Shown here: positions 19,640-32,291 of the stretch, piece after piece | Layout: every line of letters begins with the position of its first letter | Numbering within the stretch: the stretch's first letter is position 1 | Source of the DNA: Rhodothermales bacterium | GTDB lineage: Bacteria; Bacteroidota; Rhodothermia; Rhodothermales; ISCAR-4553 | NCBI GenBank assembly: GCA_026984335.1 | Contig: JALSSK010000381.1 | Location: 1 to 41,831 of the forward strand | Length of the DNA: 41,831 nt | Reading direction: 5' to 3' | Program-made: the position numbers and the translations under genes | The notes under the pieces: model-generated | What the model saw: only the letters and a program-made list of their open reading frames with translations | Database searches by the model: none | What the model was told of the DNA's origin: nothing

Positions 19640-21661
19640 TCACTTCGCGAGCGTCATCGTCCGCGTCTCGACGAACGACCCGGCTTCGAGGCGATACAGG
19701 TACAGCCCGCTCGGAAGCGCGTCCGCCGACCACGTGACGGTGTGCCGCCCGGCGGACTGCGGCCCCGCGACGAGCACCGCCACCTCCCGGCCGAGCACGT
19801 CGAACACCGAGAGACGCACGGAGGCGGCCTCGGGCAAGGTGTACCCGATGTTCGTGGAAGGGTTGAAGGGGTTCGGATAGTTCTCCGCCAGCGCGAACGT
19901 AGATGGCGCGGTCTCCGCGTCCGTGCCTGCCCCCGTCACGGGCGAGAGGTCGGTCTCCCAGCCTGTGCCGCCCGCGTGGCCGCGCCCTTTGGAGGCGGAC
20001 TTCTCCCAGGCGAAGGCATGGCTGTCCTCGGCCTGCGGGAAGTCGCCGATGACGGCGGCGAGCGTATAGTTTCCGGGCGGAGCGGCGGCGGGCACGTTCT
20101 GCCGGAGCGCGCGCGTGAGCGTCTCGCCCGGCGCGAGCGTCCACGTCACCGGCCCCCGGGTGATCGCGACGCCCGGCCCGGTGATCACGATCCAGAGATC
20201 GACCGTCTCGGTCCCGGCCGAGGCGCTGGCCACTTCGAGCGTGTACGTGATGCGCCCGCCCGTGGCCGGGATGACGACCGGCGCGGCGTCCGGGCCGACC
20301 GTCACCGTGACGAGCGGGGTCGTCTCCGCGCCGTACTCGTACGCCCCGGCGTCGCAAAGGCCGTCGCGGCGGGTGAAGCCGCGCTGATCTTCGGCGAGGG
20401 CCGCGCCGTCCGTGCCGGTGCACGATCCGGCGTCCACGGCGGGGCTTCCGGCGAGGAGCGCGTGCGTCGGCGTGGGGCCGCCGTTGTCGGCGAGCGGGCC
20501 GAGGACCGACGAGAAGACACTCTCGGGCGCGACGGTCGTGTCGGCGGCGTCCGCCGGGCATCCCGCGCCGCCGCCCACCACGTTCGCGCCCTCCGAGACG
20601 AGCGCGCCGGCGCAATCCGCCGCGGCGTCGTCCCGCTCGGCCGTATTGCCCGCGACGAGGCTGCCGCGGAGCGTGACCGTGCCGCCGAAGGACGCGATGC
20701 CGCCGCCGTGCGCCGTGGCGGCATCCCACACCACACCGACGCTGTTGTCGGTGATCGTGGCGGCCTCGACGGTCGCCGTTCCCGTATTGCGGAGGCCGCC
20801 GCCCGCGCCGCCCTCGAAGCACGAGAGCGTGTTGCCGCTGAGGGTGCTGTTTCGGATCGTGGCCGTGCCCGCGTTGAAGACGCCGCCGCCGTAACAGGCG
20901 TCCTGTACGTCCGTGGCCTGGTTCGCCGAGACGGTGCTTCGTTCGAGGACGAGTGTGCCCTCGTTCCAGACGCCGCCGCCCGCGCCGCCTTCGAGGAGGA
21001 AACCCGACGCCGCGTTGTTCTCGATGAGGCTCTCGATCAGGTAGAGCGTGCCGCCGTTCCAGATGCCGCCGCCCCTCGGCTGCGCGTCGAAGTCGGAAGC
21101 GACCGAGGCCACGTTGTCGCGGACGACGACCCGGGTGAGCGTGAGCGTGCCCGCGTTCCAGATGCCGCCGCCTTGCGCGTTGTCCGTGAAGAGGTCGCCG
21201 CCGTCCCGGATCGTCAGGTCCTCCACGTGCGCCGTGACGCCCGCCTCGACGACGAGAACGTGGTCGTGCCCGGCGGAAGCGCCCTTGTACGCGATGCGTT
21301 CTCCGGCCCGGAGGAGCGTCACCATCGGCGCGATCATCGCCGTGCGGGGGGCCGCGCCGCCGTTCGTCGGGTCGGCGTCGAGGGTGGTCCGGTCCGCGCC
21401 CGCACCGCGCAGCGTGACGTCCGAGCGGAGGGTCAGGTCGCCCTCGTAGAAGGCGCCGGCGCCGAGGGCGACCGTGTCGCCGGGCAACGCCGCGTCGAGG
21501 GCGTACGCCACGGTGGCGCACGGGCGGGCGGCGTCGAGGCAGTCGTTCCCCGCGTCATCGCCCGTGACGGACACGTGCCGCGTTTGCTGCCCCGCCGCCG
21601 GAAATGCCGCGCTCCCCATCACCATCCATACGATCAAGAACATCCAACCGCTGCGTTTCAT
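19640..21661 (-). CDS. Secreted right-handed parallel beta-helix (choice-of-anchor Q-like) protein with T9SS sorting domain
   Basis: Start MKRSGWMFLIVWMVMGSAAFPAAGQ; repeated GGGIWNxGTLxLxxxxVxxN motifs; DNGGPTPTHALLAGSPAVDAG; NYPNPFNPSTNIGYTLPEAASVRLSVFDVLGREV CTD. Confidence 0.92.
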   Translation of the reverse strand: MKRSGWMFLIVWMVMGSAAFPAAGQQTRHVSVTGDDAGNDCLDAARPCATVAYALDAALPGDTVALGAGAFYEGDLTLRSDVTLRGAGADRTTLDADPTNGGAAPRTAMIAPMVTLLRAGERIAYKGASAGHDHVLVVEAGVTAHVEDLTIRDGGDLFTDNAQGGGIWNAGTLTLTRVVVRDNVASVASDFDAQPRGGGIWNGGTLYLIESLIENNAASGFLLEGGAGGGVWNEGTLVLERSTVSANQATDVQDACYGGGVFNAGTATIRNSTLSGNTLSCFEGGAGGGLRNTGTATVEAATITDNSVGVVWDAATAHGGGIASFGGTVTLRGSLVAGNTAERDDAAADCAGALVSEGANVVGGGAGCPADAADTTVAPESVFSSVLGPLADNGGPTPTHALLAGSPAVDAGSCTGTDGAALAEDQRGFTRRDGLCDAGAYEYGAETTPLVTVTVGPDAAPVVIPATGGRITYTLEVASASAGTETVDLWIVITGPGVAITRGPVTWTLAPGETLTRALRQNVPAAAPPGNYTLAAVIGDFPQAEDSHAFAWEKSASKGRGHAGGTGWETDLSPVTGAGTDAETAPSTFALAENYPNPFNPSTNIGYTLPEAASVRLSVFDVLGREVAVLVAGPQSAGRHTVTWSADALPSGLYLYRLEAGSFVETRTMTLAK

Positions 21662-21886
21662 GCCGAACCCATTTTTCTTCCGTGAATAAAACCGAACCGT
21701 CCTTTCCCCGCGCCGCCGCGTGCGGCTCGCCCGGTCCGGTATCACAAAGGCCGGGCGGACGATCTATCGAGACCCGGAACGATACGACGGGCGAGGAACC
21801 GGGTGGAAAACGGTCGGTTCGGCCTATCGACAACCACCGTGCCGTTTCCGCTCGGCAATCCCGTCCCGTCTGCCCTCACCGCTTCG

Positions 21887-23795: not shown

Positions 23796-26696
23796 ATGAA
23801 GGCATCTCTGTCGCCGGAGCGGTGGGAACGGGTGCAGCGCCTCTTCCATGAGGTCGTTGACCTGGATCCGGAGGCGCGCGCGGCCCGGCTCGCCGAGGCT
23901 TCCGGTGAGGACTCGGCCCTTCGGGAAGAGGTGGAGCAGTTGCTGGAGGCGTACGTGCACGCGAGCGCTTTCCTCCGTGATCTCCGTCCGTTGCCGTCGT
24001 TGCCGCCGCAGGCCCCGGAGGCGTCCGGCTCGGGGCTGCGGACGGGTCATCGCATCGCCCGGTACGAGGTGCGCGAGCGGCTCGGAGGCGGCGGCATGGG
24101 CGAGGTCTATCGCGCCTATGACACGAAGCTCGGGCGCACCGTCGCGCTCAAGTTTCTGACCTCGTACATGAGCGGCGATGCGCAGGCCAAGGCGCGTTTC
24201 CTGCACGAGGCGCATGCCGCCGCCGTGCTCGACCACCCCAACGTCGGCGCCATCCACGAGGTCGGTGAGGCGGACGGGCATCTGTACATCGCGATGACCC
24301 TCTACGAAGGGGAAACCCTTCGGGAGAAGATCGCGCGCGGGCCGTTGCCGCTCGACGAAGCGCTCGATTATGCCGTGCAGATCGCGCGCGGGCTGGCCGA
24401 GGCGCACGCGCACGGCATCGTGCACCGGGACGTCAAGCCGGCGAACATCATCGTGCGCGCCCCGGGCCCCACCGAAGCGGACGGCCTCGTGAAGATTGTC
24501 GACTTCGGGCTGGCCAAGGTGCAAGACGTCGCGCTGACGCGGACCGGCACGACGATGGGGACCGTCGCCTACATGAGCCCCGAACAGGCGCGCGGCGAGG
24601 TGGTCGATCACCGCACCGACATCTGGGCGCTCGGGGTGGTGCTCTACGAAATGTTTACGGGCGAGCGCCCGTTCAAGGGCGCGTACGATCAGGCGGTCAT
24701 CTATGCGATTCTGAACGAGGACCCGCCTCCCATGCGTTCGGTGAACCCGGCCTTGCCGGAGGAACTGGAGCACCTCGTGATGATGTGTCTGGAGAAGGAT
24801 CGCGCGCACCGGTACACGGCCCTCGTCGATGTGCTGGCAGACCTGAGCGTGCTTCGGCAGGGCGCTTCGGAAGGGGATCGGAGCGCCTGGCCTTCGATAG
24901 GCGAGCGGCGTTCGGGCCTGCGCAGCGGCTCCCCGACGGCGATGCCGGCGACGCGCTCGGGACGGCGGCTGCGGGGGGGGATCGGCGCGGCCGTGCTTCT
25001 GGCGGCGCTGGCGCTGGCGACGCCGTGGCTCCGGCGGGCGATCCCGGGACTCGGCGGCCCGGCCATGCCCGCGCAGCGCTTCCTGGCCGTGCTCCCGTTC
25101 GACAACGTCGGCGGCGATCCGTCCAACCAGGCCTTTATCGACGGGCTCGTCTATACCGTGACGAGCAAGCTCACCGAACTGGAGCAGTTTCAGGAGGCGC
25201 TCTCGGTCGTCCCCGCCCGCGACGTGCTGCAGGCAGGGATGCTGGGCACCGCGGCCGCCTCGGAGCGCTTCGGCGTCAACCTCGTCGTCTCCGGCAGCGT
25301 CCAACGCTCGGAGCGCGGCGTGCGCATCACCCTCCAACTGGTCGACCCGAAGGCGGAACGGGTGCTGGCGAGTCGCCAACTCGACACGCCCCTGATGGAC
25401 ATCGCGGACCTCCAGGACGGCGTCGTGGTGACGCTGGCGGGTCTGCTGGAGGTAGAGCTGAAGCCCGCCGCCGAGAGGGCGTTGATGGCCGGGCGGACCG
25501 CCTTTCCCGTGGCCTATGATTTTTACACACAGGCTCTCGGTTACCTGCAGCACTTCGAAGACGAGAGCAACCTCGACGCGGCCATCAGCCTGTTCGATCT
25601 GGCCGTCAGGGAGGACTCGGCCTATGCTCTGGCGTATGCCGGACTCGGGGAAGCCTTCCTTCGCAAATATCAGACGAAGAACGACCCCCCTCTGGTGGCG
25701 CTCGCCGTCCGGAACGGCGAACGAGCCGTGGCCCTCGACGATGAACTCGCGCCGGTCCACATCACGCTCGGCATGATTTATTATGAGACGGGGCGCTATG
25801 AGAAGGCGGAACTGGCGTATCTTCGGGCGCTCGCGCTGGAGCCGAACAACGCTGCGGCCTATCACGAACTCGGACAGGTATACGCCCGGCAGGACAAACG
25901 GGACAAGGCCGAGGAGAGCTATCGGAGGGCGATAGCCCTGAAGCCCTCATACTGGCTCTATCACAATTCGCTGGGGCAGTTCTATCATCGCATGGGGCGC
26001 CATGCGGAGGCCATCCCCCGCTTCGAGGAGGTTATCGCGCTTCAGCCGGACAACCCGTGGGGCTACAACAACGTGGGGGTGCAATACAACCGCCTGGGGC
26101 GGCTGGACGAGGCCATCGCGTGGTACGAGCAGGCAACGCGGGTCAATCCGAAGGCTGCGCGCGCCACGAGCGTCGCCTACCTCAATCTGGCGGGCGTCTA
26201 TTATTCGCAGGATCGCTTCGCCGAGGCGGCGCGCACCTACGAGCGCGCCGTCGCCTTGCGGGAGACCGATTATGCCGCGTGGCGCGATCTGGGCGACGCC
26301 GCATACTGGTCCGGAGACGCCGAGGCGGCCCGCCGGGCCTGGCGGCGCGCGGCAACGCTGGCTCTCGGACGGCTGGAAGTCAACGCGCACGATGCCGAGA
26401 CGCTCGGCTTCCTCGCCGCCGATTATGCGCGTCTCGGCGCGCGGGACTCCGCCCACGCCGTCATCGGCCGCCTGCTCGCCGTGCAGGAGCTTCCCGCAGA
26501 AACGCTGCTCTCCATCGGGAAAGCCTACGAAATCATGGGCGAGCGCGCCCGTGCGTGGCCGTACATCGAAGCGGCGCTCCGCGAAGGCTACAGCCCGGCG
26601 GTGCTGGCCTTCTCTGCCTGGCTCGACGACCTTCGGCAGACCCCACGATACCAGCGGCTGGCGGAGAAGCATGCCTCCTCCCCCGGTCGGGAATAG
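23796..26696 (+). CDS. Transmembrane Ser/Thr protein kinase with TolB-like region and C-terminal TPR repeats
   Basis: Kinase core LGGGGMGEVYRAYD, VALKFL, HRDVKPANI, DFGLAK, TVAYMSPEQARGE; TM GGIGAAVLLAALALATPWL; LAVLPFDNVGGDPSNQAFIDGL; multiple TPRs. Confidence 0.95.
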   Translation: MKASLSPERWERVQRLFHEVVDLDPEARAARLAEASGEDSALREEVEQLLEAYVHASAFLRDLRPLPSLPPQAPEASGSGLRTGHRIARYEVRERLGGGGMGEVYRAYDTKLGRTVALKFLTSYMSGDAQAKARFLHEAHAAAVLDHPNVGAIHEVGEADGHLYIAMTLYEGETLREKIARGPLPLDEALDYAVQIARGLAEAHAHGIVHRDVKPANIIVRAPGPTEADGLVKIVDFGLAKVQDVALTRTGTTMGTVAYMSPEQARGEVVDHRTDIWALGVVLYEMFTGERPFKGAYDQAVIYAILNEDPPPMRSVNPALPEELEHLVMMCLEKDRAHRYTALVDVLADLSVLRQGASEGDRSAWPSIGERRSGLRSGSPTAMPATRSGRRLRGGIGAAVLLAALALATPWLRRAIPGLGGPAMPAQRFLAVLPFDNVGGDPSNQAFIDGLVYTVTSKLTELEQFQEALSVVPARDVLQAGMLGTAAASERFGVNLVVSGSVQRSERGVRITLQLVDPKAERVLASRQLDTPLMDIADLQDGVVVTLAGLLEVELKPAAERALMAGRTAFPVAYDFYTQALGYLQHFEDESNLDAAISLFDLAVREDSAYALAYAGLGEAFLRKYQTKNDPPLVALAVRNGERAVALDDELAPVHITLGMIYYETGRYEKAELAYLRALALEPNNAAAYHELGQVYARQDKRDKAEESYRRAIALKPSYWLYHNSLGQFYHRMGRHAEAIPRFEEVIALQPDNPWGYNNVGVQYNRLGRLDEAIAWYEQATRVNPKAARATSVAYLNLAGVYYSQDRFAEAARTYERAVALRETDYAAWRDLGDAAYWSGDAEAARRAWRRAATLALGRLEVNAHDAETLGFLAADYARLGARDSAHAVIGRLLAVQELPAETLLSIGKAYEIMGERARAWPYIEAALREGYSPAVLAFSAWLDDLRQTPRYQRLAEKHASSPGRE

Positions 26697-27253: not shown

Positions 27254-27396
27254 GCGGGAAAAGAACCGGAGATCACGGAGTGGTCCTTTGCGGGCCGCTC
27301 CGTCGTTTCTCCTTTTATGGGGAAGGCATCGGGGCTTGGGCGGGCTGCCTGTCCGTGCTTCGGAGAACTGACGCGCAATAAATTGTGGGGTATGCC

Positions 27397-29397
27397 ATGA
27401 AGAGCCGGATCTATGGCCTATGCCGCGCCGTGGTCGTGTGTGGGATGGGGGCGGGCGTGCTCGCCTGCGGCGGAAGTGAAGGAACGCCCGCCGGCGAATC
27501 CGTCGGGGGATCCTCGTTCGTGGCGGCGACGGTGAGCGCGCGCCCGACGGCGGGTCCATCGGGAACCGCTCCTACGGAGTGGGCCTTGCTCGTGGGCATC
27601 AACACGTATCCCAACCTCACCAGATTTTCTCAACTAGAAGGGGCCGTCAACGACGTGGAGCGAATGCGGGCTTTGCTCACCACGCGGTTCAGTTTTCCGC
27701 CGGAGCACGTGACGGTGCTCCTCAACGAGGCGGCCACGCGCGCGCGCATCCTGGCTGAGCTCGACCGGCTGGCGAGCGTCGCGCAGCCGGGCGACATCGT
27801 CGTGTTCCATTACAGCGGCCACGGCTCCCGCCTCGACGATCAGAACGGGGATGAACTCGACGGCATCGACGAGACCATCGTGCCGGTGGACAGCGACCGC
27901 GCCGGCGCGCGCGACATCCGCGACGACGAGATCAACGAGCGCCTGGGCAAACTTCCGCCGGGCGCGTTCGTGACGCTCATCCTCGACAGCTGCTATTCCG
28001 GCACGGCCTCCCGCGACCTCGAAGGCGGTCGTTCCCGCCGCGTCGTGCGCGACAGCCTGCTCCACCCGACGCCGCCGAGCAGAACGCGGGGGACACCCGC
28101 CGCCGACGGCCTCGCCGCGCCCGGCATGAACTACGTCCTCCTCTCCGGCGCGCGCGCCGATCAGCAGTCGAAGGAGTTCAAAAAAGACGGGAGGGCCTTC
28201 GGGGCGATGACCTATTTTCTCACCGAAACGCTCAACGAAGCCGACTCCTCGATGACCTACACCGATCTGCGCGACGTCGTGCAGGGACGTGTGAACACGG
28301 TCTTTGCCAACCAGCAGCCCCAGCTCGAAGGCTCCTCGTCCGATCATTACGTTTTCAGCCGTGAGGCGCGACTGGCCGAGCCGTACGTGCGGGCCGCTCC
28401 GGGCGAGGGCGGGCGCGTCCTGCTGAAGGCGGGGCAGGTCCATGGCATGACGGCGGGCTCCGTCTTCGAGGTCTACGCGCCGGGCGTGAAGCGCTTCTCG
28501 GAGCCGAACCGCGCGCTGGCGCGGGTGCGGGTGACGCACGTGGCGCCGTTTACGTCGGAGGCCGAGGTGCTCTCGGGCGGGCCGACGCCGGAGGCGGCGC
28601 GGGCGGTCGAACGGGCGCACGTCTATCCCGATCTCCGGATGAAACTCCGGTACGAAGGCCTCGCCGCCTCGCCGCTCCTGAAGGCGCTCAAGGACTCGCT
28701 CGACGGCTTGAGCCACATCGAAGCCGTGCCGGAAGGCAGTGAGGATTTCGACCTGCGCCTGTATGAGCGCGACGGAAACGTGCATCTCCGGCAGAACGAG
28801 ATCGTCTTTTCCGAACCGGTCCCGGTCGAGGAGCCGGAGGCCCTGGAACATCTGGTGAAACAGGTGGGGCAGTGGGCGAAATGGTTCAACGTGCTTGCCC
28901 TCGACGATGCCGCGCCGGAGGAGCAGATCGTGCTCCACTTGCGCATCGAGAATCCCGACGGCAACGAGGGGCGGCCCCGGAACGAGGCCGTCGAGGGCGC
29001 CGACCTGTGGTATGCGTTCGAGAACCGCTCCGACGAGGACCTCTTCATCACCGGGATCGCGCTTTTCTCGACGGGCGCCATACAGCCGTTCTATCCGTGG
29101 CCGCCGGGCGCGGGCGAGCGGCTCAAGGCCGGAACGAGAAGCCGGGAGATCCGCATCCCGAACCTCCGGATCCCGGGCCGGACGCGCCCCTACACGAAGG
29201 ACATCATCAAGGTCTTCGCGACCACCACCCCCATCGACCTGAGCAGCCTGATGCAGGGCGGCATCCGGGGCGGCGCGAACGACCCGCTCGGGCAATTGAT
29301 GCTGCAGGCCACCCAGGGCGCCACCCGCGACTTCACGCCGCAGGAGGCGGGCGCGTGGTACACCACCCGGCAGGCGTACGTCGTCCACCGAAAATGA
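27397..29397 (+). CDS. Caspase-family (peptidase C14/orthocaspase-like) lipoprotein with C-terminal DUF4384-like region
   Basis: Lipobox GAGVLAC; ALLVGINTYPN, HYSGHGS (His codon 27820), DGIDETIVPVD, LILDSCYSG (Cys codon 27991); C-terminal DLWYAFENRSDEDLFITGIALFSTGAIQPFYPWPPGAGERLKAG. Confidence 0.93.
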   Translation: MKSRIYGLCRAVVVCGMGAGVLACGGSEGTPAGESVGGSSFVAATVSARPTAGPSGTAPTEWALLVGINTYPNLTRFSQLEGAVNDVERMRALLTTRFSFPPEHVTVLLNEAATRARILAELDRLASVAQPGDIVVFHYSGHGSRLDDQNGDELDGIDETIVPVDSDRAGARDIRDDEINERLGKLPPGAFVTLILDSCYSGTASRDLEGGRSRRVVRDSLLHPTPPSRTRGTPAADGLAAPGMNYVLLSGARADQQSKEFKKDGRAFGAMTYFLTETLNEADSSMTYTDLRDVVQGRVNTVFANQQPQLEGSSSDHYVFSREARLAEPYVRAAPGEGGRVLLKAGQVHGMTAGSVFEVYAPGVKRFSEPNRALARVRVTHVAPFTSEAEVLSGGPTPEAARAVERAHVYPDLRMKLRYEGLAASPLLKALKDSLDGLSHIEAVPEGSEDFDLRLYERDGNVHLRQNEIVFSEPVPVEEPEALEHLVKQVGQWAKWFNVLALDDAAPEEQIVLHLRIENPDGNEGRPRNEAVEGADLWYAFENRSDEDLFITGIALFSTGAIQPFYPWPPGAGERLKAGTRSREIRIPNLRIPGRTRPYTKDIIKVFATTTPIDLSSLMQGGIRGGANDPLGQLMLQATQGATRDFTPQEAGAWYTTRQAYVVHRK

Positions 29398-29480: not shown

Positions 29481-31190
29481 ATGTTCTCTCCCTCGATTCG
29501 ACGACGCGCGGCGACCCGGGCGCTCGGCCTGTTCCTCGTGTGTGCGGCGCTGTGGGCCCCCTCCGTTTTCGCGCAGGTGCGCTCGATCTCCAGCGAGACC
29601 CCCGTCACGATCACCTTCTTAAACGCCACCGAGACCCCGGTGGAGGTCTACTGGATCGACTTCGAGGGGCAGGAGCAGCATTACGGCGCGCTCGAACCCG
29701 GGATCACCTGGGAGCAGGGCACCTATGAAACGCACGCCTGGCGCTTCAAGAAAGCCGGGCGCGTGCTCGGGGTCTATGTGGCAAACGCCAACGCTCGGCA
29801 ATATTACACCGTCTATGACGCCGGGCAAAAACCGCTCGGTCCCGCCGACTTTTCGCCCGACCGTGAGGAGCCGGGCCTCCAGGTCTTCAAAGACGGCTTT
29901 TCGCTTCCGTATCGCCCGATCACCGTCTGGAGCGCCGAGGAGGTCTACGATCTCAACAGCTCGAATACTTTTTTGCTCAGCTTCGACGCGCTTCTGGAGA
30001 CGGCGGGGCAGGAACTGATCCTCGCGTTCTCACACAACCGGGTTCCGTGGGGTGCGCCGGGGCCGGACGCGCTCACCATCCGCGTTTCGCCGAGCGACCA
30101 GGATTTCTGGTTCCGAACCGGCTTTTACGGGAATTGGCTCGACACGGAGCTTTATTACGAGCCGTCGGAGCAGATCGTGCGAACGGGGCAAACGCAACGG
30201 TATACCGTCGCCCTGACCGATGCCGCCGTCACGGTGGCGGTGGATGGGCGGGTGATGGTGCGCGCCTCGCTCGAAGGGGTCGCTTTCGAGCGCAAGGGGC
30301 ATGTGGGCTTCGTCGTCTTCGGAAACGACGAACTCGAACACACGCGGATCGCCTATCGGAACGTGTCCGTCAGTCGCCCTCCCACGCCGGCGCCGGCAGG
30401 CGGACTTGCGGGCGAGGCCGGCGCAAACCGGGACTTCGGCACGCCTGCGAACACGGAGACGCCCGAGGCTTCAGAGGCGGGCCGCTATTTTGCGCTCGTC
30501 ATCGCCGTCGAAAAGTATTCCGGAGCGACCATCGAGGACCTGACGTTTCCCGTGCAGGATGCCCAAAACGTCGTCCGGACGCTGACGGAGAACTATACCT
30601 TCGATCCGCAGAACGTGATGTTCCTCCGCGATCCCTCGAAGGCGGAGATCACCAATGCGCTGGATCGGCTGGTGGATCAGGTCAAGCCGGAGGACAACCT
30701 GCTGATCTTCTATGCCGGGCACGGGTACTGGGACGAACGGATGAAGCAGGGCTTCTGGCTGCCGGCGGACGCCGAAAGGGGCTTCCGGGCGAACTGGCTC
30801 TCGAACGGCACCATCCGCGATTACATCAACGGCATCCGGACCCGGCACACCCTGCTCATCTCCGATGCGTGCTTCAGCGGCGGGATCTTCAAAACGCGGC
30901 AAGCCTTCACCGGCGCCGACCGGGCCATCGAGGAGCTGTTCCGGATTCCCAGCCGCAAGGCGATGACGAGCGGAACGCTGAACGTGGTGCCGGACAAAAG
31001 CGTGTTCGTGCGCTATCTGATCAAGACCTTACGGGAGAACCGCGCGCCTTTCCTGACGGCGCGGCGCCTCTTCGACACCCTCCGCGAGCCGGTGATCAAC
31101 AACAGCCCGCTCTCTCAGGTCCCGCAGTTCGGCGTCGTGCACAACACGGGCGACGAGGGCGGCGAGTTCATCTTCGTGCACCGGCGGTAA
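29481..31190 (+). CDS. Exported protein: VHL-beta-like domain + jelly-roll-like region + caspase-like (C14) protease domain
   Basis: Signal peptide MFSPSIRRRAATRALGLFLVCAALWAPSVFAQ; VRSISSETPVTITFLNATETPVEVYWIDFEGQEQHYGALEPGITWEQGTYETHAWRF aligns ungapped with VHL beta; C14 core YFALVIAVEKYS, LIFYAGHGY (His codon 30720), LLISDACFSG (Cys codon 30870). Alternative coupled ATG at 29394. Confidence 0.9.
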   Translation: MFSPSIRRRAATRALGLFLVCAALWAPSVFAQVRSISSETPVTITFLNATETPVEVYWIDFEGQEQHYGALEPGITWEQGTYETHAWRFKKAGRVLGVYVANANARQYYTVYDAGQKPLGPADFSPDREEPGLQVFKDGFSLPYRPITVWSAEEVYDLNSSNTFLLSFDALLETAGQELILAFSHNRVPWGAPGPDALTIRVSPSDQDFWFRTGFYGNWLDTELYYEPSEQIVRTGQTQRYTVALTDAAVTVAVDGRVMVRASLEGVAFERKGHVGFVVFGNDELEHTRIAYRNVSVSRPPTPAPAGGLAGEAGANRDFGTPANTETPEASEAGRYFALVIAVEKYSGATIEDLTFPVQDAQNVVRTLTENYTFDPQNVMFLRDPSKAEITNALDRLVDQVKPEDNLLIFYAGHGYWDERMKQGFWLPADAERGFRANWLSNGTIRDYINGIRTRHTLLISDACFSGGIFKTRQAFTGADRAIEELFRIPSRKAMTSGTLNVVPDKSVFVRYLIKTLRENRAPFLTARRLFDTLREPVINNSPLSQVPQFGVVHNTGDEGGEFIFVHRR

Positions 31191-31205: not shown

Positions 31206-32291
31206 TCACGCGAGCTTCTTCGTATAGCCTTCTTCGGCCATGCGTTGCATGCCTCCCGCCAGGTTGAAGACCTGCCGGAAGCCCATCTGCTGGGCAAGGC
31301 GTGCGGCCCGCGTCGAGCGTCCCCCGGAGCGGCATACGAACAGGTAGGCGGCTTCTCGGGGCAAAGACTCCAGGCGCGCGGGCAAGTCCTCGCCGATGGG
31401 ATGGCACAGCGCGTGGGGCAAGGGCGCATACTCCTGCGCGTGCTCTTCGGGGGTGCGCACGTCGATGATGGTGAAAGAATCGAGTTGATGGATCACGTCT
31501 CCCGGGGAAAGATCAACGACGTGAACGCCGGTGATGAGGCCGATGAGATCGGACGTAATGCGCCCCCCTTCCTCGCTGCGTCGGCGTACGGAACGGGTAA
31601 GCCGGGCCGTATCCTCGTGTTGCCCCATCGATGAAGTGACGAGGGTTTGAAGTTGAGAGGAGATGCCCTCGATTCCGTTCGACAATTCGTTGAAGGCAGA
31701 AGAAGCCGCCTGTGAGACTTCCTGGTTTTGGTTGAGGTGCTCCCGTGTTTCTTTGGCGATTTGCTGCATGGTCGTCAGCCCGTGCGCGACGCTCTCGCCG
31801 ATATCCAGAGCAGCCTGCCCGCTTTGCCGCGCCAGATCCGCCACCGCCTCGGCCACCACGCCGAAGGCGCGTCCCTCCAGACCCGCCCGCATGGCCTCAA
31901 TCGTGGCATTGATGGAGACGATGTTCGATTTCCGGGCAATGTCGTGGATGACGCCGGATTTCTCCCGGATCTCCTGCAAGATGGTCACGGCCTGATGCAG
32001 ACTGTCGTTGATCCCATGAAGGGTCTCGACCGACTCTGAGAGCCGGTGAATGTTTGCTGCGCCTTTCGCCGAAATGCTCAATGCTTGTTTCGTCAGCACA
32101 AAGGCATCTTTCAGCATCGAAAGATTTTCCGAAACGGTCTCGTTGAGCGCGCGAAGCTGGCGCGCCGTTTCGTCGAGCATCTCCGCCTGTGCGTGTGAGG
32201 AGGTGATCAGGGATTCGCGGATGCGCGTCAATAATTGATCGTGCGAAGCCCGGCGTGGGGCCTGCGCACGATCGGAAGCTAAACCATGCAT
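31206..32291 (-). CDS. Soluble methyl-accepting-chemotaxis-type signalling domain fused to C-terminal rhodanese domain
   Basis: MCP tip-like NIVSINATIEAMRAGLEGRAFGVVAEAVADLARQSGQAALDI; C-terminal FTIIDVRTPEEHAQEYAPLPHALCHPI...YLFVCRSGGRSTRAARLAQQMGFRQVFNLAGGM rhodanese with Cys loop. No TM helix. Confidence 0.92.
   Translation of the reverse strand: MHGLASDRAQAPRRASHDQLLTRIRESLITSSHAQAEMLDETARQLRALNETVSENLSMLKDAFVLTKQALSISAKGAANIHRLSESVETLHGINDSLHQAVTILQEIREKSGVIHDIARKSNIVSINATIEAMRAGLEGRAFGVVAEAVADLARQSGQAALDIGESVAHGLTTMQQIAKETREHLNQNQEVSQAASSAFNELSNGIEGISSQLQTLVTSSMGQHEDTARLTRSVRRRSEEGGRITSDLIGLITGVHVVDLSPGDVIHQLDSFTIIDVRTPEEHAQEYAPLPHALCHPIGEDLPARLESLPREAAYLFVCRSGGRSTRAARLAQQMGFRQVFNLAGGMQRMAEEGYTKKLA

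What the first reader, a model, noticed from the sequence alone, without database searches (positions are those of the whole stretch)
29481..31190. Exported VHL-beta-domain/caspase-like protease fusion with a conserved hydroxyproline-pocket pattern
Seen: after the signal peptide, WIDFEGQEQHYGALEPGITWEQGTYETHAWRF aligns without gaps to human pVHL residues 88-119 ([32 protein letters not shown], recalled from memory). I count 12/32 identities. The pVHL pocket residues W88, Y98, H115 and W117 are identical and S111 is Thr. The upstream segment VRSISSETPVTITFLNAT is colinear with LRSVNSREPSQVIFCNRS. The same polypeptide ends in a C14 domain with both catalytic motifs (YAGHG, SDACFSG). Established: the pVHL beta domain binds hydroxyproline-containing HIF peptides; C14 proteases are Cys/His peptidases. 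Inference: a periplasmic or surface protease whose substrate choice may depend on a modified-proline-type ligand. I believe VHL-like domains occur sporadically in bacteria, but I cannot say whether this fusion has been described.
Basis: partly seen in the sequence, partly recalled or inferred. Interest (0 to 1): 0.88.

Follow-up and report, generated by a model that had tools for sequence, protein, structure and literature searches.

The report
Exported bacterial VHL–caspase-like fusion protein
A bacterium exports a caspase-like protease carrying a true relative of the human tumour-suppressor VHL's peptide-reading domain, and across bacteria such domains are exported, often joined to proteases, and mostly keep the residues human VHL uses to grip hydroxyproline, which suggests an uncharacterised bacterial way of recognising that modification.

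Summary
The 569-aa ORF at 29481-31190 has a signal peptide, a VHL beta domain (Pfam E=1.4e-10; human pVHL is the best hit among solved structures) and a C14 domain with its His/Cys dyad. AlphaFold (pLDDT 93.7) gives a fold whose 50 best PDB matches are VHL or VHL-complex entries (TM up to 0.85). The gene is real: an ortholog in another genus of the family (VHL-LamG-LamG-VHL-C14) lies in the same cassette (transmembrane Ser/Thr kinase-TPR, C14 lipoprotein, VHL-C14).

Bacterial VHL domains are common in Planctomycetota (41/294 genomes) and almost always extracytoplasmic. Most sit in prolyl (S9/DPP-IV-type) peptidases, others in HExxH metallopeptidase-like, C14 and CHAT proteins. The hydroxyproline-pocket set W88-Y98-S/T111-H115-W117 is intact in 51/72 domains, and in 38 of the 42 that are peptidase- or CHAT-linked. 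One clade on sulfatases, esterases and LRR proteins has lost H115.

Best reading: an exported peptide-reading module that brings a hydroxyproline-type ligand to, or switches on, the protease. That the ligand is hydroxyproline is inferred, not shown. No paper found describes the protease fusions, the extracytoplasmic rule or the pocket survey.

The parts
29481..31190 (+). VHL-LamG-C14 gene, 569 aa
   Evidence: Open frame; ortholog in G001 likewise starts just before its signal peptide
29481..29576 (+). Sec-type signal peptide (n-region RRR, hydrophobic core, VFA-Q)
   Evidence: Sequence; hydrophobic segment at residue 15, mean 1.89; no lipobox Cys
29577..29813 (+). VHL beta domain, residues 33-111
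   Evidence: Pfam E=1.4e-10 over 33-100; seven strands, pLDDT 93.7; PDB matches are VHL or VHL-complex entries
29652..29741 (+). Hydroxyproline-pocket equivalents W58, Y68, T81, H85, W87 (pVHL W88, Y98, S111, H115, W117)
   Evidence: HMMER alignment to pVHL; pocket list from PMC9528729; conservation
29874..30377 (+). LamG/ConA-like beta domain, residues 132-299
   Evidence: 54% identical to the second such domain of G001, whose protein matches Laminin_G_3 and 3keto-disac_hyd; all-beta in the model; no Pfam hit of its own
30489..31139 (+). Peptidase C14 (caspase-like) domain, residues 337-553
   Evidence: Pfam E=1.6e-16; fold matches MALT1 and metacaspases
30720..30722 (+). Catalytic His414 (YAGHG)
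   Evidence: Invariant in A5
30870..30872 (+). Catalytic Cys464 (SDACFSG)
   Evidence: Invariant in A5
27385..29397 (+). Cassette partner: C14 lipoprotein (YSGHG, DSCYSG; lipobox VLAC)
   Evidence: Pfam C14 E=4.7e-28; 61% identical to the G001 gene in the same place
23796..26696 (+). Cassette partner: Ser/Thr kinase - one TM (about residue 394) - FlgO-like/TPR
   Evidence: Pfam; 57% identity to G001, 48% to the G022 neighbour; TM

Best explanation
The gene encodes an exported caspase-like protease with an N-terminal ligand-reading head. The head is a homologue of the pVHL beta domain. It docks a protein or peptide bearing 4-hydroxyproline, or a closely similar hydroxylated residue, in the W58-Y68-T81-H85-W87 pocket. 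The LamG-like domain probably adds contact to glycan or matrix. Docking either holds the bound protein in front of the C14 active site or relieves the protease; the D-x-C motif suggests cleavage after Arg/Lys, as in metacaspases. The kinase-TPR and the C14 lipoprotein of the cassette act in the same envelope process. Shown: domains, predicted fold, conserved pocket residues, conserved cassette. Inferred: export, the ligand, the coupling to proteolysis, and the role of the kinase.
For: Pfam and PDB-sequence hits. VHL fold at pLDDT 93.7, with the 50 best PDB matches VHL or VHL-complex entries, including the complexes with capped hydroxyproline (4awj) and RIPK1 hydroxyproline (7cjb). In 72 non-redundant bacterial domains: W88 71, Y98 67, S/T111 72, H115 57, W117 70; S111 and H115 bind the Hyp hydroxyl and Y98 its carbonyl in pVHL (PMC9528729). 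VHL is fused to C14, CHAT (a clan-CD-like domain), S9 prolyl-type and HExxH metallopeptidase-like proteins. 38 of 42 peptidase- or CHAT-linked domains keep the whole set. In the CHAT and kinase proteins the VHL lies beyond a TM segment. The cassette is conserved between two genera.
Against: No binding or protease data. The contrast between peptidase-linked and carbohydrate-enzyme-linked domains rests largely on one clade that lost H115, so it is not independent evidence. That clade keeps W88, Y98, T111 and W117 without H115, so these four may be partly structural. The side pockets that read HIF residues in pVHL (N67, R69, F91, I109) are not conserved. The genome has no collagen-like match, and the one 2OG oxygenase found resembles PKHD-type enzymes only weakly. 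In CHAT-TM-VHL the VHL cannot present substrates to CHAT, since they are on opposite sides of the membrane. The nearest C14 relatives elsewhere lack VHL.
Confidence: 0.45

Rival explanations
1. The pocket reads a different ligand, such as a glycan, a sugar-linked hydroxyl or a non-proline hydroxylated group, and the VHL domain acts like a carbohydrate- or matrix-binding module.
For: VHL co-occurs with LamG, a mannan-binding MVL repeat, F5/8C and NPCBM domains, sulfatases and SASA esterases. An aromatic pocket with His and Thr would suit sugars.
Against: The clade on sulfatases and esterases has lost H115, whereas the peptidase-linked domains keep the exact pVHL set. The commonest partner is a prolyl-type S9 peptidase.
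Confidence: 0.25
2. The VHL domain is an extracytoplasmic sensor: ligand binding switches the attached output (C14, CHAT or kinase) rather than recruiting substrate. The cassette is then an envelope signalling or cell-death module.
For: CHAT-TM-VHL and kinase-TM-MORN-VHL place VHL outside and the output inside. Kinase-TPR genes adjoin both the VHL-C14 and the CHAT-VHL genes. PADLOC caspase and SAVED_CHAT models match.
Against: In the window protein, the S9 and the HExxH proteins, VHL and enzyme are on the same side of the membrane. No NTPase or adaptor domain of the described bacterial cell-death systems was seen in the genes examined.
Confidence: 0.35
3. The VHL domain is only a scaffold or intramolecular lid; the conserved aromatics are fold residues and no modified proline is read.
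For: W88, Y98, T111 and W117 persist in the H115-less clade. Flanking HIF-reading pockets are not conserved.
Against: H115 and S/T111, the hydroxyl ligands, stay fixed across diverse partners and phyla in 57/72 and 72/72 domains.
Confidence: 0.2

Closest known systems
pVHL beta domain (Pfam PF01847), von Hippel-Lindau tumour suppressor
   Same: Gap-free sequence match over residues 63-130, same beta-sandwich, same Hyp-pocket set with Ser to Thr at 111.
   Different: Exported; no elongin-binding alpha domain matched; fused to LamG and C14; side pockets for HIF not conserved.
Prokaryotic caspase homologues (orthocaspases/metacaspases, C14)
   Same: His/Cys dyad, D-x-C motif, fold.
   Different: VHL head. 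The passages I read of the domain-architecture survey PMC3501461 do not mention VHL, and 'hippel' occurs nowhere in its main text.
Planctomycetota S9/DPP-IV-type peptidases with a VHL domain
   Same: Exported peptidase plus VHL, pocket set intact in nearly all.
   Different: Serine prolyl-type peptidase; VHL precedes the beta-propeller; their gene neighbourhoods were not examined.
Litorilituus VHL-domain protein (PMC9002001)
   Same: Secreted bacterial VHL protein, described from sequence only.
   Different: No peptidase; the paper argues tumour suppression and, in the passages read, no bacterial role.

Membership tests
VHL beta domain | Profile match above the curated cut-off | tested here: met
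   41.5 bits against 21
VHL beta domain | VHL beta-sandwich fold | tested here: met
   Predicted, pLDDT 93.7; TM up to 0.85 to pVHL
Hydroxyproline reader of pVHL type | W88, Y98, S111, H115, W117 equivalents present | tested here: met
   W58, Y68, T81, H85, W87; Ser to Thr keeps the hydroxyl
Hydroxyproline reader of pVHL type | The five residues form one pocket in 3D | tested here: inconclusive
   Implied by gap-free alignment and fold match; no coordinates given to measure it
Hydroxyproline reader of pVHL type | Binds Hyp over Pro | not testable with these tools
   Needs a binding assay
VHL E3-ligase substrate receptor | Alpha domain that binds elongin C | tested here: not met
   Only the beta domain matches; LamG and C14 follow instead
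Peptidase C14 | Catalytic His and Cys in conserved context | tested here: met
   H414 and C464 invariant in 23 aligned sequences
Peptidase C14 | Proteolytic activity | not testable with these tools
   Needs a protease assay
EACC1-associated caspase (NCBIfam NF047832) | Score above the curated cut-off | tested here: not met
   75.3 bits against 140

The most novel reading that the evidence does not exclude
Bacteria have an extracytoplasmic, ubiquitin-free counterpart of the VHL readout: a VHL module that recognises prolyl-hydroxylated proteins, their own or those of algal or animal matrices, and delivers them directly to fused proteases of several unrelated catalytic classes.
Probability: 0.35. 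Interest if true: 0.92.

Novelty: new variant of a known kind. Interest (0 to 1): 0.7.

Why it matters
pVHL is known as the cytosolic hydroxyproline receptor of animal oxygen sensing. A homologous domain with the same pocket set, exported and joined to proteases, would mean that the reading module is used in bacteria for direct proteolysis, and would bear on where the animal reader came from. It is directly testable, since pVHL ligands with matched inactive epimers exist. It also offers candidate bacterial hydroxyproline-binding reagents.

Tried and rejected
Chance resemblance: rejected. Misassembly or contamination: rejected, because a complete same-family genome has the cassette. C14 relatives generally carry VHL: rejected, as the near Bacteroidota relatives carry WD40, glucodextranase-B-like or other N-termini and no VHL. 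'Bacterial VHL is always peptidase-linked': rejected, as sulfatase, SASA, LRR, kinase-MORN, F5/8C and stand-alone forms exist. 'Pocket loss tracks partner class independently': not claimed, since H115 loss is essentially one clade. My first conservation count used a regular expression that needed H115; the unbiased recount is. Self-made collagen-like ligand: no match in the genome. The five-sequence VHL alignment had no stretch conserved enough for a viral-contig scan.

Full report
The observation. The frame 29481-31190 (+) encodes 569 residues. Pfam finds VHL (PF01847) at residues 33-100, E=1.4e-10, and Peptidase_C14 (PF00656) at 337-553, E=1.6e-16. A sequence search of the PDB returns human pVHL first, E about 3e-6, gap-free over pVHL 63-130 (pVHL numbering mine). 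Residues 1-32 look like a Sec signal peptide without a lipobox, so the protein is probably periplasmic or released (sequence).

Fold. AlphaFold2 on residues 29-119 with 62 other bacterial VHL domains gives pLDDT 93.7, pTM 0.84, seven strands. The 50 best PDB matches listed are VHL or VHL-complex entries, with TM normalised by the query up to 0.85. They include the complexes with capped hydroxyproline (4awj) and the entry on RIPK1 hydroxyproline (7cjb). The full-length model (mean pLDDT 74.7, pTM 0.47) is good for C14 (MALT1- and metacaspase-like) but says nothing reliable about how the domains are arranged.

The middle domain. Residues 132-299 have no Pfam match of their own, but are 54% identical to the second of two such domains in the G001 ortholog, and that protein matches Laminin_G_3 and 3keto-disac_hyd.

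Cassette. In G001, the only other same-family genome listed among the relatives (one contig, 99% complete), the order is kinase-TPR, C14 lipoprotein, VHL-LamG-LamG-VHL-C14, at 57%, 61% and 49-57% identity to the window genes. In G022 of the same order, a kinase-TPR gene (48%) lies next to a CHAT-TM-VHL gene, with a CHAT-Big2 gene nearby; the VHL is 37% identical to the window's. The kinase has one TM segment between kinase and TPR, which would put the TPR outside; this topology is inferred from hydropathy.

Survey. VHL is found in 3 of 114 genomes of the order, 2 of 396 of the phylum sample, 6 of 289 of an alphaproteobacterial class sample and 41 of 294 of the Planctomycetota sample; three plasmid records also have it. 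Of 26 planctomycete proteins scanned first, 20 carry DPPIV_N and 18 Peptidase_S9. Others carry HEFAH-type metallopeptidase-like domains: one matches ATLF and M90 above their cut-offs, the rest only weakly. The lower-scoring places, fetched to avoid selection, add sulfatases, SASA esterases, LRR, kinase-MORN, F5/8C-NPCBM and further S9 proteins. Partner classes in the tally come partly from motifs (GxSAGG, HExxH, DACFSG) and partly from Pfam. In 51 of 71 frames a strong hydrophobic segment precedes the VHL; most of the rest have a weaker signal-like segment or a truncated frame. The VHL is thus almost always extracytoplasmic, as far as hydropathy can tell.

Pocket. In pVHL, Trp88, Tyr98, His110, Ser111, His115 and Trp117 form the site; Ser111 and His115 bind the Hyp hydroxyl and Tyr98 its carbonyl, while His110 uses its backbone (PMC9528729). 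In 72 non-redundant bacterial domains W88 is kept in 71, Y98 in 67, S/T111 in 72 (64 Thr), H115 in 57, W117 in 70; 51 keep all five. Peptidase- or CHAT-linked domains keep all five in 38 of 42, carbohydrate-enzyme-, carbohydrate-binding- or LRR-linked ones in 1 of 17 (Fisher p=7e-10). A domain tree puts the H115-less domains in one clade, support 0.905, so the p-value overstates the evidence. The positions that read the HIF residues flanking Hyp in pVHL vary, which fits a Hyp-type site in other peptide contexts.

Ligand source. The genome has no collagen-like match. One 2OG oxygenase was found with the one family searched; it resembles PKHD-type enzymes weakly. Bacterial prolyl hydroxylation is known for EF-Tu in Pseudomonas (stated in PMC7864055), but EF-Tu is cytosolic. 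An outside source, such as hydroxyproline-rich algal or animal matrix, is therefore plausible; this is inference.

Novelty. Paper searches over a library of openly licensed papers found one paper on a bacterial VHL protein (PMC9002001), without a protease. Two relevant papers, on prokaryotic caspase homologues and on bacterial death-domain systems, do not contain 'hippel' in their main texts. The library lacks most subscription papers, and domain databases can list architectures that no paper discusses, so the claim is only that no description of the fusions was found. Verdict: real, well supported as homology, mechanism open; a new variant of a known kind.

Noticed in passing
31206-32291 (-): Methyl-accepting chemotaxis signalling domain fused to a rhodanese domain in one protein; an unusual pairing next to the cassette.
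   Followed up: no
L097-L103, L106, L108-L111, L114-L119, L122, L125, L130-L135, L144, L147: Planctomycetota S9/DPP-IV-type peptidases carry a VHL domain ahead of the propeller; L133 instead has an H115-less VHL at its C-terminus.
   Followed up: partly
L124, L129, L136-L139, L141, L142, L148, L149: A clade of VHL domains on sulfatases, SASA esterases and LRR proteins has Ala or Asn in place of H115 but keeps the aromatic residues.
   Followed up: partly
L145:2733-4454 (-): Kinase-TM-MORN-VHL protein with an intact pocket set: a possible receptor kinase with a VHL sensor.
   Followed up: no
L090:1252-1851 (-): Small alphaproteobacterial secreted protein joining VHL to a mannan-binding MVL repeat.
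   Followed up: no
19640-21745 (-): Protein with a Por-type (T9SS) C-terminal sorting tail.
   Followed up: no
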